Positions 33,106 to 38,436 of a stretch of 64,000 nucleotides of DNA are shown in pieces. Every line of letters begins with the position of its first letter. Positions within the stretch are counted from its first letter, which is position 1. This DNA comes from Flavobacterium sp. J27 (GTDB taxonomy: Bacteria > Bacteroidota > Bacteroidia > Flavobacteriales > Flavobacteriaceae). The stretch is from the NCBI RefSeq assembly GCF_004303025.1, contig NZ_PJQW01000003.1:124001-188000 (forward strand), given 5' to 3'. The translations under genes were made by a program, and so were the position numbers. The notes beneath the pieces were generated by a model. It was given only the letters and a program-made list of their open reading frames with translations, had not been told where the DNA came from and did no database searches.

Positions 33106-34845
33106 ATGAAATTCTTTGATAAGAGTATAATTATTTTGATGTTTTTAACTTTTTCAGCTTTTTGTCAAAATAGTATTGAAAATGATTTATTTGAAAAAAA
33201 CATCAAAATTAAAACCCAAAACTGGTTAAATAAGCCTCATTTTCAGAAAGCTTCATTCTTTTTCTTAGAGAAAAATTGGGATTCAACGTTAGTTTATTCC
33301 ATGAAACAATTAAGCGAAAGTAAAAAAAAATTGGAACTAAATAATTATTGCCATTTTTTTAGAGGGTTTAGTTTTAAACAAAAAAAGTTATTTCTTGAAA
33401 GTCAAAAAGAACTTGATTCTGTTACTGAAGATTTTGATTTTTATAATAGAGTAGTAATGCTTCTAGGTGAAACTACACTAGAATTGAAAGATTTTGAAAA
33501 AGCTTTGTCCTATTTTAAACAGTTAGAAAATGTTGTTAATCTCGATTTTTTTGGAATTAAGAAAAGTACAGTGGAACATAATTTAGGTATTTGCTATATT
33601 CACATCAAAGATTTTGAAAAGGCAGAATACTATTTGTTACAAAGTGCTAAAAAGCAAGAAGAAGACAAAGACACACTTCTTTTGGTAGGTTCTTATGGTG
33701 ATATTGCGAACCTGTATTATGAGCAGTATAAAGATGATTTGGCAATTCCTTATTTTATAAAAGCGTATGAATTAGCTAAGAATACAAAAGATTATAAGTT
33801 AAAATTTCATACGGCGAATAATATGGCAGTTGTGGAAGAGAATAGAAAAGATTTTTTAAAAGCGTTACAATATAGGAAGGAATTGGAAAAGTGGAAGGAC
33901 TCTTTAAACGATCAAAATAAAATATGGGAGGTTGCACAACTCGAAAAACAATTTGCTGTAAAAGAAAAACAAAAAGAAGTAAGTTTTTTACAGGTCGAAA
34001 ATAAAGTTAAAATTGCAGAACGAAATGGTCTTTTTTATTCAGCAATAGTACTGTTGTTGTTGCTAGGAACAACAATTTATTTTTATAAAGAAAAAATAAA
34101 AACAAATAAAATTATCTTGGCACAGAAAGAAGCTTTAAATGAACTAAATGCCACTAAAGACAAGCTGTTTTCTATCGTAAGTCATGATTTGAGATCGTCT
34201 GTAAATATGATGAAAGTTAGTAATGCTAAATTATTAGAAAATTTAGCGACTAAAAACTTGGAGGAATTAGATGTTTTACTTCACCAAAATAATCAAATTG
34301 CAAATAGTACCTATAATTTGTTAGATAATTTATTACATTGGGCACTATTACAAACAAAACAATCCTACTTTGAAATTACTTCTCAGCGATTGTATTTTTT
34401 AGTGGAGCAAGTAGCCTATAATTATTTGCCTTTAATGCATGACAAAAAGCTTCAATTTGAAAATACAGTCAATAAGAAAGAAATCATTTTTGTAGATCAA
34501 GAATCGTTAAAATTATTGCTTAGAAATTTTTTAGACAATGCTATAAAGTTTTCTAATGAAAACGGGTTTATAAAAGTATTTTCAGAAAGTGTTGATGATA
34601 GTTATTGCCGTTTGATTATTGAAGATAATGGATTAGGAATGAGTGAAATTACTAGGCAATCTCTTTTGAAAGAAACTACTTTGCTGGCTAAAAAAGAAAA
34701 CGAAAAAATAATTGGTTCTGGTTTAGGATTGCAATTATGTAAATCAATTATAAAAAAGAATAACGGGAAATTAGATATACAAAGCGAATTAGGAAAAGGA
34801 ACAAAAATCATTGTATCTTTGCCTAAAAAGCATTTACATGGATAA
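33106..34845 (+). CDS. TPR sensor histidine kinase
   Basis: A 579-aa membrane kinase. A signal peptide (FFDKSIIILMFLTFSAFC) leads to tetratricopeptide repeats in the periplasm (about residues 60-290). One membrane span lies near 307-327 (SAIVLLLLLGTTIYFY). The HisKA domain has H360 in FSIVSHDLRSSVNMM, and a HATPase domain carries DNAIKFSNENG, EDNGLGMS and GSGLGLQLCKSI. The partner is the LytTR regulator, whose ATG lies inside the last codons of this gene. TPR kinases of this form are widespread in Flavobacteria and their ligands are mostly unknown. The flanking genes are orphans, so local control of them is plausible but unproven. Confidence 0.9.
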   Translation: MKFFDKSIIILMFLTFSAFCQNSIENDLFEKNIKIKTQNWLNKPHFQKASFFFLEKNWDSTLVYSMKQLSESKKKLELNNYCHFFRGFSFKQKKLFLESQKELDSVTEDFDFYNRVVMLLGETTLELKDFEKALSYFKQLENVVNLDFFGIKKSTVEHNLGICYIHIKDFEKAEYYLLQSAKKQEEDKDTLLLVGSYGDIANLYYEQYKDDLAIPYFIKAYELAKNTKDYKLKFHTANNMAVVEENRKDFLKALQYRKELEKWKDSLNDQNKIWEVAQLEKQFAVKEKQKEVSFLQVENKVKIAERNGLFYSAIVLLLLLGTTIYFYKEKIKTNKIILAQKEALNELNATKDKLFSIVSHDLRSSVNMMKVSNAKLLENLATKNLEELDVLLHQNNQIANSTYNLLDNLLHWALLQTKQSYFEITSQRLYFLVEQVAYNYLPLMHDKKLQFENTVNKKEIIFVDQESLKLLLRNFLDNAIKFSNENGFIKVFSESVDDSYCRLIIEDNGLGMSEITRQSLLKETTLLAKKENEKIIGSGLGLQLCKSIIKKNNGKLDIQSELGKGTKIIVSLPKKHLHG

Positions 34846-35584
34846 TATTAATGTATTAATTATTGAAGATACTCCTTCTGAAAGTGAAGCATTGATTAAA
34901 GTATTAGAAGCAAATAATTATACTGTTGCTGGTGTTGCTACCAATCATAAAGATGCTTTGTCTATGTTTTATGAAGCTAAAATAGATATTGTAATTATTG
35001 ATATTTTTTTAAATGGTTCTCCAGATGGAATTGCATTTGCAGAAACCATAAATATTGTTCCAAATGCTTCTAAACCTTTTGTGTTTTTAACCAGTTCGTC
35101 TGACAGACAAATATTTGAGCGTGCCAAATTAACTAAACCTTTTAGTTACTTAATGAAACCATTTAATGAATTAGAATTATTATATGCTTTAGAGTTAGCT
35201 GTGGAAAAGTTCTATAATCAAAGTGATGTTTTTTTAAGTGATGAAGAAAATACGGTTATAAGTGAAGAATATCTATTTATAAAAAAAGGAAAATCGCTAA
35301 AGAAAGTTTTAATTGAAGATATTATTTACATTGAAGTTGAAGAAAAGTATTGCAACATCATTACAGAAAATGAAAAGTTTCTTATTCTAATTTCTTTAAC
35401 AAAAATTCTAGAATTACTTGATGCTTCTCTTTTTGCAAGAACGCACAGAAATTTTATTGTAAATAATAAAAAAATTACTGAAGTTATTCTTGCCGATAAC
35501 CTTATTGTTTTAACAGGAGGATACAAGGCTACTTTAAGCGAAAAGTATAAAGATATTATTAAAAATGTGCGTACTTTAAAATAA
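34838..35584 (+). CDS. LytTR-family response regulator
   Basis: A 248-aa regulator. The receiver domain has phospho-acceptor Asp55 (VIIDIFLNG) and the conserved lysine in YLMKPFNELE. The LytTR domain is in the C-terminal half (LIEDIIYIEVEEKYCNI, FARTHRNFIVNNKKITE). The open frame begins at 34811, but the ATG at 34838 gives MDNINVLIIEDTPSE, the expected receiver start. It overlaps the kinase stop by 8 bp, so the pair is translationally coupled. Unlike the first LytTR system of this window, I could not find a convincing paired repeat upstream of its neighbours. Confidence 0.9.
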   Translation: MDNINVLIIEDTPSESEALIKVLEANNYTVAGVATNHKDALSMFYEAKIDIVIIDIFLNGSPDGIAFAETINIVPNASKPFVFLTSSSDRQIFERAKLTKPFSYLMKPFNELELLYALELAVEKFYNQSDVFLSDEENTVISEEYLFIKKGKSLKKVLIEDIIYIEVEEKYCNIITENEKFLILISLTKILELLDASLFARTHRNFIVNNKKITEVILADNLIVLTGGYKATLSEKYKDIIKNVRTLK

Positions 35585-35714
35585 TTTTAAAAACGAGGTT
35601 TTCTTCGTGCCAATTATTTTCATTCTTATGCCTATTTTTTTCAGATGCATTCTCCTTGAATTTATTTTTGATTTTGGTAATTAAAAAATAGACTAAACTC
35701 AAAAATAAATACTT

Positions 35715-37037
35715 ATGACAACTTTAAATGTAATTTTTCAGAATAAAAGTGGGTTATCCGACAAGTTAATTTCTATTGGATTTGTTTCAGGAAGCACAAC
35801 GGCACCATTTGCAATAAGTTACCCAAATTCTAACCCGTTAGATCCTTTAGATATTGAAATCCTTCCTCTAAACCAAGAAGTAGGGAAAGGAAAATGGTAT
35901 GCTTTTGAGGATTTAAAAAAAGGAGTTTCAATAAGAAATTTTAGTGGTCGAATTTATATTTCTTATGGGCAAACGTGGTCAGTTTTAAATACGTTTTATG
36001 AACCTGCTCAAAATATTACCGATGTTAATTTTTTTCTTCGCTATGATAAAATGGAACTTACTTTTAATGGTAAAGCTAGCGACGTGGCCGATTTAACGAG
36101 TATAGATTATTGGAGTATACCGATGCAATTAACTACCTTAAAAGATGATGTTATCATACAAATTGATAAAGGAATAAAAGCTGGAGTTACTTCACAAATG
36201 ATTTATTCTAATTTGAATAATCTTACATCTACCACTCAGTCTAGACTTGCTAACGCATTACCAGCTTTGGTTCCAGGTGATTTTCATCAAAATATAAACC
36301 AGCCAGGTACAGGTTTTGCCCGAATTATTGGCCCCTCTTCTTATCCACCAATTGGTGGCGTACCTGTTATACCATATCCACTTTTTAATGATTATTTGAA
36401 TTACTTAATGACTAATTTTGGTACAAAAACAACTTTAGGGCATATAATTCCTACATTGGGAATTGGAAAAATAGCATATATAAAAGGACAATTTAATGGT
36501 GTAGGACCAAATGTGCCACTTTCAGGACCTCAAAGTGCCCAAGCGTATGATTTGACAGCTACTATAGATGACAATGGAAATGTTACCTTATCTGGAAGGG
36601 TAGGTACAACTAATACAACAATGGTGTATAAAAAAGAAGATTTGCTTAATCCCGACGGAATTTATGGAGCCAATGCGTCATTCTCTTTAAATGGTGCTAG
36701 TACTCAAAAACCAGCTAATGATGTATATGGATGGATTACAGGAGATTTATTAGCTGGATTTAATATTGGAGCAATTGGTTCGCAAACTAAAATGAATGAT
36801 GTTATGGTTGGTGCCATGTTTAGTAGTCAATGGTTTACTATTGCTAATGATCAATTGTTTAGTTATTTGCAAAGTAATAGTTCTTATTATAATCAGTATG
36901 CAGCCACTTTACAACAATTGTCTGATGCTTATAATTTTGCTTACTCCGATCGTTTTGCACCTGTTTTAGTATCATTAAACCCTGCCAATGTGGATACTTT
37001 AGAAATATCTTTTTTTAATGTAACCGAAAACAATTAA
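35715..37037 (+). CDS. GH64/thaumatin-like beta-1,3-glucanase-family protein without signal peptide
   Basis: A 440-aa protein whose motif order matches family 64 beta-1,3-glucanases. FSGRIYISYGQTWSVL corresponds to the family's SGRI-F-S strand. DKMELTF and ADLTSIDYWSIPMQL correspond to the E-T and VDF-IP region, and GTGFARIIGPSSY to the R-aP strand. The protein ends with AYNFAYSDRFAPVLVSL. Known members are secreted, yet this N-terminus (MTTLNVIFQNKSGLS) has no signal and no sorting domain. I could not confirm catalytic acids, so a binding or non-enzymatic role is possible. A -7-like TATTTTTG is at 35663-35670. Confidence 0.5.
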   Translation: MTTLNVIFQNKSGLSDKLISIGFVSGSTTAPFAISYPNSNPLDPLDIEILPLNQEVGKGKWYAFEDLKKGVSIRNFSGRIYISYGQTWSVLNTFYEPAQNITDVNFFLRYDKMELTFNGKASDVADLTSIDYWSIPMQLTTLKDDVIIQIDKGIKAGVTSQMIYSNLNNLTSTTQSRLANALPALVPGDFHQNINQPGTGFARIIGPSSYPPIGGVPVIPYPLFNDYLNYLMTNFGTKTTLGHIIPTLGIGKIAYIKGQFNGVGPNVPLSGPQSAQAYDLTATIDDNGNVTLSGRVGTTNTTMVYKKEDLLNPDGIYGANASFSLNGASTQKPANDVYGWITGDLLAGFNIGAIGSQTKMNDVMVGAMFSSQWFTIANDQLFSYLQSNSSYYNQYAATLQQLSDAYNFAYSDRFAPVLVSLNPANVDTLEISFFNVTENN

Positions 37038-37209
37038 TCTCAAACCAAGAGGATTGTTTTTTCAATTTAAAAGTGTTTTTTGTTTGGTTCCATTCGTTGC
37101 TCGTTTTGTGACTAAAAAGTTGGTGCTCATGGTTATTTGTTCGTTTTTACTACAATTCATTTTTAGCTTTATATAACAAATTAATAGTTTGCTAAATTAA
37201 TTTTTAAGT

Positions 37210-37268
37210 AGTGGAGTTCAGAAACCATGTAAAAAACGAGGCGTATTCTGAAAAGCCTAATGAGTAAG
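37210..37268 (+). ncRNA. Conserved 5' leader, copy A, predicted H-type pseudoknot
   Basis: This 59-nt block is almost identical to 37952-38011. TTCAG (37217-37221) can pair with CTGAA (37248-37252), and AGGC (37239-37242) with GCCT (37255-37258). The order of the four segments gives an H-type pseudoknot. The stems are short, but all four segments are conserved in both copies. It ends 24 nt before the chosen ATG. It could be a riboswitch-like or regulatory leader; I cannot match it to a known class. Confidence 0.55.
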
Positions 37269-37292
37269 AATAAACAAATAAATTTAAATAAA

Positions 37293-37748
37293 ATGATAAC
37301 AACTAATGTATTTCAATTATCTGCTGTAAGCCAAAATGATGTAGAAGCTGCTGACGGAAGCAAAATATTTTGCACACTCGCAAAAATTACGAATGGAACT
37401 TTAAGAACAGGATCTTTTCCAATTAATGAAGCAGTCCATTTACCAACACCTCCAGGTCAAAACAGTTCAGGAGATACCCCTTCATGGTTTTTGATTCCTG
37501 AAAACAACATCTTAGAAACTTCATTTGAGCTAGAAATTAATTGCCCTTCTGATTCTAATTATCCAGTTACTAAAATAACGGTAAAAGCTTCCGATGTTCA
37601 AAAATGGGCAAACATACCTTATAATGAAAGAGAGAATCAAATTTATCAAGAAGGAAAAAATGGAATTTTTGGATTCGCGCAAGAAGGCCCAAATGGATTA
37701 ATTTATACCATTACTGCTGGAGTTTTAAATCCTCAATTACAAGGTTAA
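37293..37748 (+). CDS. Hypothetical 151-aa protein with conserved leader
   Basis: I do not recognise a family. The mature-looking protein has a beta-rich body (FELEINCPSDSNYPVTKITV, IFGFAQEGPNGLIYTITAG) with two cysteines. It has no signal peptide and an alpha stretch NIPYNERENQIYQEGKNG. An upstream ATG at 37260 is in frame, but it lies within the conserved leader block. The second leader copy has no ATG there, so I place the start at 37293 (MITTNVFQLSAVSQNDVEAADG). The N-terminus is unusually polar for an exported protein. It sits between the GH64-like gene and another orphan with the same leader. Confidence 0.6.
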   Translation: MITTNVFQLSAVSQNDVEAADGSKIFCTLAKITNGTLRTGSFPINEAVHLPTPPGQNSSGDTPSWFLIPENNILETSFELEINCPSDSNYPVTKITVKASDVQKWANIPYNERENQIYQEGKNGIFGFAQEGPNGLIYTITAGVLNPQLQG

Positions 37749-37782
37749 ATCTAAAATAAGGTTTTGTTATGTTTAATTTGTT

Positions 37783-37815
37783 AAAGAGACTAATTGATAA
37801 ATAGTCTCTTTTTTG
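37783..37815 (+). terminator. Terminator after the 151-aa protein gene
   Basis: AAGAGACT and AGTCTCTT form an 8-10 bp stem around AATTGATAAAT, followed by a T run. It separates the two leader-bearing genes into independent units. Confidence 0.8.
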
Positions 37816-37951
37816 CGATTTTACTTGTTTTGTAAATCAGGTATTTTTATTTGGAAAAAAAGTGTTTTTACTTTATTGTAAATCAGTTATTTGTGCTCTG
37901 TTTTTTTCTGTGGTTTAAAAGTAATTTTACAACGTAATATTACAACAACCA

Positions 37952-38011
37952 AGTGAAGTTCAGAAATCACATTAAAAAACGAGGCGCAACCTGAAAAGCC
38001 TTACGAGTAAG
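37952..38011 (+). ncRNA. Conserved 5' leader, copy B, predicted H-type pseudoknot
   Basis: This is the counterpart of 37210-37268. TTCAG (37959-37963) pairs with CTGAA (37991-37995), and AGGC (37982-37985) with GCCT (37998-38001). The core AAAAAACGAGGCG and the end GAGTAAG are also shared. The block ends 20 nt before the ATG. A -7-like TAATTTTA is at 37922-37929, so the block would lie in the 5' UTR. Confidence 0.55.
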
Positions 38012-38031
38012 GATACAAATAAGCAAAAATT

Positions 38032-38373
38032 ATGACTGCACAATTTGAATGGAAATTAGAAGCCTACCAAAAACAAGGTAATTTATGGCTGAGATGGAGT
38101 ACTAATGCTCCTTTTAGAGCACAACAAGGAAGAATATATGTTTATAAGGGAGGTTTTCCTTCTAACCCAACAGACAATGATAAAAAATGGACTTGGGATA
38201 CCGATCATAATCATGATTGGGACACTGGTTTAGTTTGGGGAACAGGTTGGAACTGTGCTTATATAGCGGAAGCTCCTAAAAACGGACCTTATGTCTATTT
38301 TATGAAATTAACTACTGACGCTAAAATGGGACCAGATGTGGCTAAGGTAGTTGAAGCTAGTGAAGTAAATTAA
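38032..38373 (+). CDS. Hypothetical 113-aa tryptophan-rich protein with conserved leader
   Basis: I do not recognise a family. The small acidic-to-neutral protein has no signal peptide. It is rich in Trp, Gly and Asp (NLWLRWSTNAPF, DKKWTWDTDHNHDWDTG, LVWGTGWNCAYIAEAP), with strands GRIYVYKGGFP and YVYFMKLTTD, suggesting a compact beta-sandwich. The aromatic clusters could serve ligand or carbohydrate binding; that is an inference. A single cysteine is present. It has its own leader and a strong terminator, so it is a monocistronic unit. Confidence 0.6.
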   Translation: MTAQFEWKLEAYQKQGNLWLRWSTNAPFRAQQGRIYVYKGGFPSNPTDNDKKWTWDTDHNHDWDTGLVWGTGWNCAYIAEAPKNGPYVYFMKLTTDAKMGPDVAKVVEASEVN

Positions 38374-38397: not shown

Positions 38398-38436
38398 AAA
38401 ATCCCCATAAATGAAAATATTTTATGGGGATTTTTT
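38398..38436. terminator. Strong bidirectional terminator
   Basis: AAAATCCCCATAAA and TTTTATGGGGATTTT form a long stem with an 8-nt loop, flanked by A and T runs. It separates the 113-aa gene from the end of the convergent GbsR-linked operon. Confidence 0.85.

What the first reader, a model, noticed from the sequence alone, without database searches (positions are those of the whole stretch)
37210..38011. Twin 5' leaders with conserved H-type pseudoknot upstream of two unrelated orphan genes
Seen: 59-60 nt blocks at 37210-37268 and 37952-38011 are nearly identical, although the coding sequences behind them are not. TTCAG/CTGAA and AGGC/GCCT interleave as a pseudoknot in both. The blocks stop 20-24 nt before the ATG, where translation could be controlled. 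They differ mainly outside the pairing segments. I cannot assign them to a known riboswitch or ribozyme class. They may be a new regulatory RNA, or a duplicated promoter/leader cassette.
Basis: partly seen in the sequence, partly recalled or inferred. Interest (0 to 1): 0.75.

Follow-up and report, generated by a model that had tools for sequence, protein, structure and literature searches.

The report
Twin copies of orphan DUF805 RNA
The two matching leaders are copies of an already catalogued but functionally unexplained regulatory RNA, which appears to fold into linked knots just before the start codon of many unrelated genes and probably controls how well they are translated.

Summary
Both blocks are Rfam RF03081, "DUF805 RNA" (window 37206-37274, 70.4 bits; 37948-38018, 68.5 bits; gathering score 51.1). 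The window's genome has five copies, and the class occurs across the phylum. On 198 distinct copies, eleven covarying pairs form four short helices: hairpins P1 and P2, a pseudoknot from the P1 loop to the junction (PK1), and one from the P2 loop to the 3' tail (PK2). The element is anchored to the start codon: 183 of 198 copies have an ORF's ATG 8-22 nt downstream, with an A-rich, SD-poor initiation region between; promoter-like boxes lie at no single distance. The genes behind are diverse: 192 ORFs fall into 112 clusters. The leader also occurs in Pseudomonas and on a Bradyrhizobium conjugative plasmid, before cystatin-like genes. Best reading: a riboswitch-like leader acting at translation initiation, signal unknown. 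Known class; new members, refined anatomy, wider range.

The parts
37206..37274 (+). Leader 1: RF03081 DUF805 RNA
   Evidence: cmscan 70.4 bits, gathering 51.1; R1 72.9 bits
37211..37228 (+). Leader 1 hairpin P1: GTGG 37211-37214 with CCAT 37225-37228
   Evidence: columns 5-8/19-22 covary on 198 copies; 98.5% of cells paired on 113 distinct rows, in an alignment fitted to P1 and P2
37218..37239 (+). Leader 1 pseudoknot PK1: TC 37218-37219 (P1 loop) with GA 37238-37239
   Evidence: columns 12-36 and 13-35 covary; 95.0% of cells paired
37240..37257 (+). Leader 1 hairpin P2: GGC 37240-37242 with GCC 37255-37257
   Evidence: columns 37-55, 39-53 covary, the middle pair hardly varies; 100% of cells paired
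37247..37269 (+). Leader 1 pseudoknot PK2: TCT 37247-37249 (P2 loop) with AGA 37267-37269
   Evidence: columns 45-67, 46-66, 47-65 covary; 77.6% of cells paired, the third pair being absent in 61 of 112
37293..37748 (+). Gene 1 behind leader 1, 151 aa, no family match; counterpart 82% identical behind a leader in G838
   Evidence: found in 1 of 150 genus genomes (its own). An in-frame ATG at 37260 lies inside the leader; taken here as not the start (inference)
37783..37811 (+). Terminator-like hairpin with T run after gene 1
   Evidence: fold -10.1 kcal/mol, z -3.82; not listed by the pattern scan
37948..38018 (+). Leader 2: RF03081 DUF805 RNA
   Evidence: cmscan 68.5 bits; R1 74.2 bits
37953..37970 (+). 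Leader 2 hairpin P1: GTGA 37953-37956 with TCAC 37967-37970
37960..37982 (+). Leader 2 pseudoknot PK1: TC 37960-37961 with GA 37981-37982
37983..38000 (+). Leader 2 hairpin P2: GGC 37983-37985 with GCC 37998-38000
37990..38012 (+). Leader 2 pseudoknot PK2: CCT 37990-37992 with AGG 38010-38012
38032..38373 (+). Gene 2 behind leader 2, 113 aa, no family match
   Evidence: in 3 of 150 genus genomes, its own included; counterpart 73% identical behind a leader in G838
38398..38434 (+). Terminator-like hairpin with T run after gene 2
   Evidence: fold -17.2 kcal/mol, z -3.91; inverted repeat I13; not listed by the pattern scan

Best explanation
Both blocks are copies of the Rfam DUF805 RNA (RF03081), a cis-acting structured 5' leader. 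It folds as two linked pseudoknots (P1+PK1, then P2+PK2), ends about 19 nt before the start codon, and acts on translation initiation of whatever gene stands behind it. Shown here: class membership, covariation in all four helices, a near-fixed distance to the start codon rather than to the promoter, an SD-poor initiation region of the usual kind between, and many unrelated downstream genes. Inferred: that the leader is transcribed, that its 3' pseudoknot (P2 loop with the GUAGGA tail) sits at the upstream edge of the 30S footprint and opens or closes access, and that it responds to a shared physiological signal (a small ligand or ion, as in a riboswitch), so that the downstream genes form one regulon. 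The signal and the sign of the effect are unknown.
For: Rfam match over the gathering score for both copies; five copies in the own genome. 12 column pairs pass a joint test (canonical, changed on both sides, dependent), 11 of them in the four helices; 100 tree-based null simulations gave at most 7. On 113 distinct rows 93.1% of cells pair and 11 of 12 pairs have changes on both sides; none of five measures is reached by any of 500 shuffles. That alignment was fitted to P1 and P2 but not to PK1 or PK2. ATG of an ORF 8-22 nt after the element in 183 of 198 copies, against 18% of shuffled stretches with any ATG there; for those 183, median 19 nt from the last PK2 base to the ATG, sd 2.7, which leaves no room for an intrinsic terminator (inference). 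Adenine at -3, -6, -12, -13 in 77, 63, 78 and 77%, and 8 of 183 gaps with an SD-like word, matching published Flavobacterium johnsoniae initiation determinants (PMC6847099, abstract and sections 14 and 15 read). 192 ORFs in 112 sequence clusters, 83 of them single. In the six Pseudomonas genomes looked at and on the Bradyrhizobium plasmid the leader stands before the homologous ATG with GGAG between.
Against: No transcription start, expression or probing data. The other tree-based test, on single pairs, was not significant: best pair expected 0.2 times by chance, third 0.9, the rest more. One of the 12 pairs of the joint test (8-12) fits no helix. Helices are short (2-4 pairs), and PK2 pairs in 77.6% of cells. 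Hits were found by a model, so sequence conservation is partly selection of hits. 15 of 198 copies lack an ATG at the usual distance, and some start choices are mine. No common pathway among the genes, so no ligand is suggested. The leader is optional: 8 of 14 cystatin-like loci examined have it, and the gene 2 counterpart in G056 has only a weak remnant (14.2 bits, E 0.077).
Confidence: 0.62

Rival explanations
1. The leader is the binding site of a regulatory RNA-binding protein (or ribosomal protein) rather than a direct sensor; the protein represses or activates translation of a scattered regulon.
For: Same facts as above: near-fixed distance to ATG, highly conserved unpaired stretches such as AAACG, GAAAA and GAGTA, scattered unrelated genes.
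Against: The leader is kept in Pseudomonas and Bradyrhizobium, where a Bacteroidota-specific protein would be missing (inference); the distribution is patchy even within the genus (37 of 61 genomes). Neither excludes a universal protein. No search for co-occurring proteins was made.
Confidence: 0.2
2. The leader is a constitutive booster: a 5' structure that recruits 30S or protects the mRNA end in bacteria without SD sequences, with no signal sensed.
For: Geometry next to the initiation region, very diverse genes, many of them short or with a hydrophobic N-terminus.
Against: Mostly accessory-looking genes in the Pfam list seen (25 of 53 families shown, phosphatidylserine decarboxylase being a possible exception); no match in many genomes (214 of 249 in the family sample).
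Confidence: 0.13
3. A DNA-level element: duplicated promoter, operator or recombination site (cassette), with the RNA fold incidental.
For: Copies cluster: 16 loci with two or three copies within a few kb, in one direction within each of these (most of these regions were fetched because they looked clustered). Pairs in opposite directions about 3 kb apart also exist (G414, G643). Repeated upstream DNA words at 37831 and 37877.
Against: Compensatory changes in four helices; near-fixed distance to ATG, while TAnnTTTG boxes fall in two zones, -45 to -31 and -15 to -1, rather than at one distance. Integron-type features were not searched for.
Confidence: 0.04
4. A self-cleaving ribozyme or another known riboswitch class.
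For: Compact double pseudoknots occur in small ribozymes and riboswitches (recalled).
Against: cmscan at E up to 1 over 37000-38300 lists only RF03081 (two lower-scoring overlapping matches of the same clan left out).
Confidence: 0.01

Closest known systems
Rfam RF03081 DUF805 RNA (clan CL00115), type Cis-reg
   Same: Both window copies score well above its gathering score over the whole model; upstream of genes; P1 and P2 as in the Rfam structure line.
   Different: The window's two genes are not DUF805 genes. The cmscan structure line shows no pseudoknots; PK1 and PK2 are added here. Whether the original description drew them is unknown to me, since the paper I recall as its source (10.1093/nar/gkx699) is not held.
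Translational H-type pseudoknot riboswitches (preQ1-I, SAM-II; recalled)
   Same: Compact pseudoknot whose 3' strand lies upstream of the start codon, no room for a terminator.
   Different: In those the SD is in the 3' strand close to the AUG (recalled); here the GUAGGA tail is about 19 nt away (23 and 19 nt in the window) and the host group rarely uses SDs (PMC6847099 abstract). No ligand known.
Second-messenger riboswitches such as c-di-GMP classes (recalled)
   Same: Many copies per genome before unrelated genes.
   Different: No Rfam match to them in the region; no ligand evidence.

Membership tests
RF03081 DUF805 RNA | Covariance model score at or above the gathering score (51.1 bits) | tested here: met
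   70.4 and 68.5 bits, model positions 1-68 of 68
RF03081 DUF805 RNA | Two hairpins P1 and P2 of the consensus structure | tested here: met
   Aligned in both copies; supported by covariation
RF03081 DUF805 RNA | Position just upstream of a protein-coding gene, same strand | tested here: met
   Both window copies; 183 of 198 copies within 8-22 nt of an ORF's ATG
RF03081 DUF805 RNA | Association with DUF805 genes (source of the name, recalled; not a criterion of the model) | tested here: not met
   Neither window gene has a Pfam match over cut-off (one sub-threshold CaKB hit). In the collection 8 of 192 ORFs fall in the cluster whose representative is DUF805
RF03081 DUF805 RNA | Bacteroidota distribution (recalled) | tested here: met
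   Class 111 of 295, phylum 57 of 296 genomes with a match; but also outside: Pseudomonas 5 of 199, a Bradyrhizobium plasmid, Ignavibacteria-type and Kapaibacterium bins
Riboswitch | Direct ligand binding that alters structure and expression | not testable with these tools
   Needs in-line or SHAPE probing and reporter assays
Riboswitch | Conserved structure with covariation, placed as a 5' leader | tested here: met
   that the leader is transcribed is inferred
Other Rfam ribozymes or riboswitches | Match to another family at E up to 1 | tested here: not met
   Only RF03081 listed

The most novel reading that the evidence does not exclude
DUF805 RNA is a portable translation-control module for bacteria without Shine-Dalgarno initiation: a double pseudoknot that touches the 30S platform directly and senses a global signal, attached to over a hundred gene clusters across Bacteroidota and carried by horizontal transfer, with a cystatin-like gene, into Pseudomonas and Bradyrhizobium, where an SD stands behind it.
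Probability: 0.15. Interest if true: 0.8.

Novelty: new member of a known kind. Interest (0 to 1): 0.45.

Why it matters
The class is named in Rfam, but no paper found here gives it a function (searches: 'DUF805 RNA', 'DUF805' with 'RNA motif', 'RF03081', 'DUF805', and broader ones; the paper I recall as its source is not held). The near-fixed geometry before the start codon, the two covarying pseudoknots and the very broad gene set make a clear test possible: which signal, and how does a leader work on ribosomes that rarely use Shine-Dalgarno sequences. The copies in Pseudomonas give a second host, with SD-like words behind the leader, for the same test.

Tried and rejected
A CGG/CCG pairing (junction with P2 loop) was considered by eye and dropped because copies with CGA break it. 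A promoter at one fixed place upstream: exact TAnnTTTG boxes are enriched (39 against 11.5 expected) but in two zones. RF03082 was guessed to be the clan partner; it is dinG and had no match in the genome, a search that rang in no control either. Phage records: no match to a Pseudomonas copy or to the plasmid protein; four IMG/VR contigs carry the Pseudomonas-type element, not shown to be phage. NCBIfam and solved structures gave nothing useful for the two window genes. The comparison of downstream genes with background ORFs (lipobox-like 15 of 81 against 6 of 235) uses a noisy background with spurious ORFs and is only a hint. The first tree-based covariation null gave no single pair below 0.05; reported as it stands.

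Rows dropped before counts: of 98 and 123 model matches the weakest 10 and 2 were left out, six more were added by coordinates, overlapping loci were merged, leaving 198. For the ORF clusters 192 of 198 had an ORF start within 60 nt. Pfam was run on 112 cluster representatives, and 25 of 53 families were shown. Of the loci of the named-genome scan (80 listed, 119 stretches found), 12 were examined with the model, plus all 6 of the viral scan.

Full report
WHAT IS THERE. The two blocks exist as described and are strongly related. A scan against all Rfam families identifies both as RF03081, DUF805 RNA, a cis-regulatory class: window 37206-37274 at 70.4 bits and 37948-38018 at 68.5 bits, gathering score 51.1, and no other family over its threshold in the 64 kb. 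A permissive scan of 37000-38300 at E up to 1 lists no other family, with two overlapping clan matches left out.

DISTRIBUTION. The window's genome holds five copies over the cut-off. At E <= 0.001 a match was found in 37 of 61 genomes of the genus (31 over the cut-off), 35 of 249 of the family (22), 111 of 295 of the class (81) and 57 of 296 of the phylum (43). These samples overlap, all include G000, and the searches used strict filters.

STRUCTURE. I built a covariance model from 81 copies, found 98 and 123 matches in fetched loci, and made a set of 198 distinct copies. Eleven of the fourteen most dependent column pairs belong to four helices. They are P1 (columns 5-8 with 22-19), P2 (37 and 39 with 55 and 53), PK1 (12, 13 with 36, 35: P1 loop with the junction) and PK2 (45-47 with 67-65: P2 loop with the 3' tail GUAGGA). 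P2+PK2 is an H-type arrangement, and so is P1+PK1. On an alignment fitted to P1 and P2 only, 93.1% of cells pair (P1 98.5, PK1 95.0, P2 100, PK2 77.6%), 11 of 12 pairs have changes on both sides, and none of 500 shuffles reaches any of the five measures. A joint test against 100 tree-preserving simulations gave 12 pairs observed, 11 of them in these helices and one (8-12) in none, against at most 7 simulated. The simpler single-pair tree test was not significant: best pair expected 0.2 times, the third 0.9 times. The two window leaders themselves show two compensatory double changes, one in P1 and one in PK2 (rows).

POSITION. In 183 of 198 copies the ATG of an ORF lies 8-22 nt after the element, 126 of them at 12-16; of shuffled stretches 18% have an ATG there. 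For those 183, the distance from the last PK2 base to the ATG has median 19 and standard deviation 2.7. The gap is A-rich (A at -3 77%, -6 63%, -12 78%, -13 77%), and 8 of 183 have an SD-like word. These are positions at which adenine promotes initiation in Flavobacterium johnsoniae (PMC6847099; abstract and sections 14-15 read). The -7 promoter word TAnnTTTG is enriched upstream (39 exact against 11.5), in two zones. So the element is tied to the start codon more tightly than to the promoter. Terminator-like hairpins follow both window genes (though the pattern scan does not list them), which suggests two separate transcription units. I could not recognise the promoter of leader 1; upstream of leader 2 two 10-nt palindromes are conserved in G845 and G838.

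GENES BEHIND. 192 downstream ORFs form 112 clusters, 83 of them single. Pfam on the 112 representatives gave 53 families; the 25 shown have one or two representatives each, among them aquaporin, PixA, rhodopsin, MscS channel, papain protease, TM2, aegerolysin and DUF805 (ten proteins followed). The two window genes match no family and are rare: gene 2 in 3 of 150 and gene 1 in 1 of 150 genus genomes, its own included. A related genome, G838, carries both in the same order, each behind its own leader. In G845 gene 2 and its leader are present, and gene 1 is not in the 3.3 kb locus around them. Sixteen loci hold two or three copies in one direction, most of them fetched because they looked clustered; opposite pairs about 3 kb apart also occur.

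OUTSIDE THE PHYLUM. Three named Pseudomonas records carry the element (64.6-67.4 bits by R1) before a cystatin-like gene of about 90 codons. In the genus of P. chlororaphis 5 of 199 genomes have it, all five before this kind of gene. In the six Pseudomonas genomes looked at and on a conjugative plasmid of Bradyrhizobium diazoefficiens (AP014688.1; transposase genes around) GGAG stands shortly before the homologous ATG; in four of these seven an earlier in-frame ATG overlaps that GGAG, so the start is my choice by homology. The plasmid protein resembles a solved cystatin (6i1m, E 0.0011), while Pfam matches are far below cut-off. Of fourteen loci with homologs of this protein, eight have the leader: three of six from the class sample, five of six from Pseudomonas, none of two Bacteroidota plasmids. 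The leader is thus separable from the gene. Transfer between phyla is an inference.

MECHANISM. With about 19 nt between element and ATG there is no room for an intrinsic terminator, so attenuation between element and gene is unlikely. The best reading is control of translation initiation, with PK2 next to the upstream edge of the ribosome footprint. A shared signal is inferred from many copies before unrelated genes. Whether the sensor is the RNA itself or a bound protein is not decided; survival in Proteobacteria leans towards the RNA itself.

LITERATURE. The held library contains no paper with 'DUF805 RNA' or 'RF03081' and none with 'DUF805' plus 'RNA motif'; eight papers hold 'DUF805', none about this RNA by title (listing only). 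Broader searches (listings) showed no title on it. The paper I recall as the source of the class is not held. The Flavobacterium psychrophilum and Bacteroides thetaiotaomicron transcriptome papers (PMC9723704, PMC7366714; passages only) do not contain the word DUF805 in the main text. PMC9976891 (passages) describes bS21 control in the same host group and has no mention of riboswitch or pseudoknot in the main text.

VERDICT. A real, conserved RNA element of a known but unexplained class. The twin leaders are ordinary members. What this work adds is the pairing model, the start-codon geometry, the breadth of genes and the occurrence in Proteobacteria.

Noticed in passing
L210 5989-6057 (-), L236 6420-6488 (+), L333 6001-6069 (+): RF03081 leaders in Pseudomonas and on a Bradyrhizobium conjugative plasmid, before cystatin-like genes, with GGAG between leader and ATG.
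   Followed up: yes
window 37831-37846 and 37877-37892: Exact repeats of TGTAAATCAGNTATTT upstream of leader 2; with one mismatch allowed 2 found, 0.04 expected.
   Followed up: partly
window 37921-37930 and 37934-37943: Two neighbouring 10-nt palindromic words GTAATTTTAC and GTAATATTAC just upstream of leader 2, kept in G845 and G838; possible operator.
   Followed up: no
L201 1417-1471: Gene 2 counterpart in G056 has a weak remnant leader: P1 side lost, P2 and PK2 strings still visible.
   Followed up: partly
window 37260, and columns 58-60 of the element: 77 of 198 copies contain an ATG inside the element; at 37260 it is in frame with gene 1 and could mislead gene callers.
   Followed up: partly
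window 33106-37037: Histidine kinase with TPR repeats, LytTR response regulator and a GH64-like protein directly upstream of the twin leaders.
   Followed up: no
L060 1501-1596, L062 1501-1596: Low-scoring variants with roughly 27 extra nt between P1 and P2 that could form an extra stem (by eye).
   Followed up: no
upstream of many class-level copies, e.g. L068, L078, L081, L092: TTGAC words concentrated about 21-35 nt upstream of the element (25 of 38 occurrences; 17.5 expected in all), often as TTCTTGAC; possibly an alternative promoter.
   Followed up: partly
L105, L024: A papain-type cysteine protease and cystatin-like inhibitors both occur behind this leader class.
   Followed up: no
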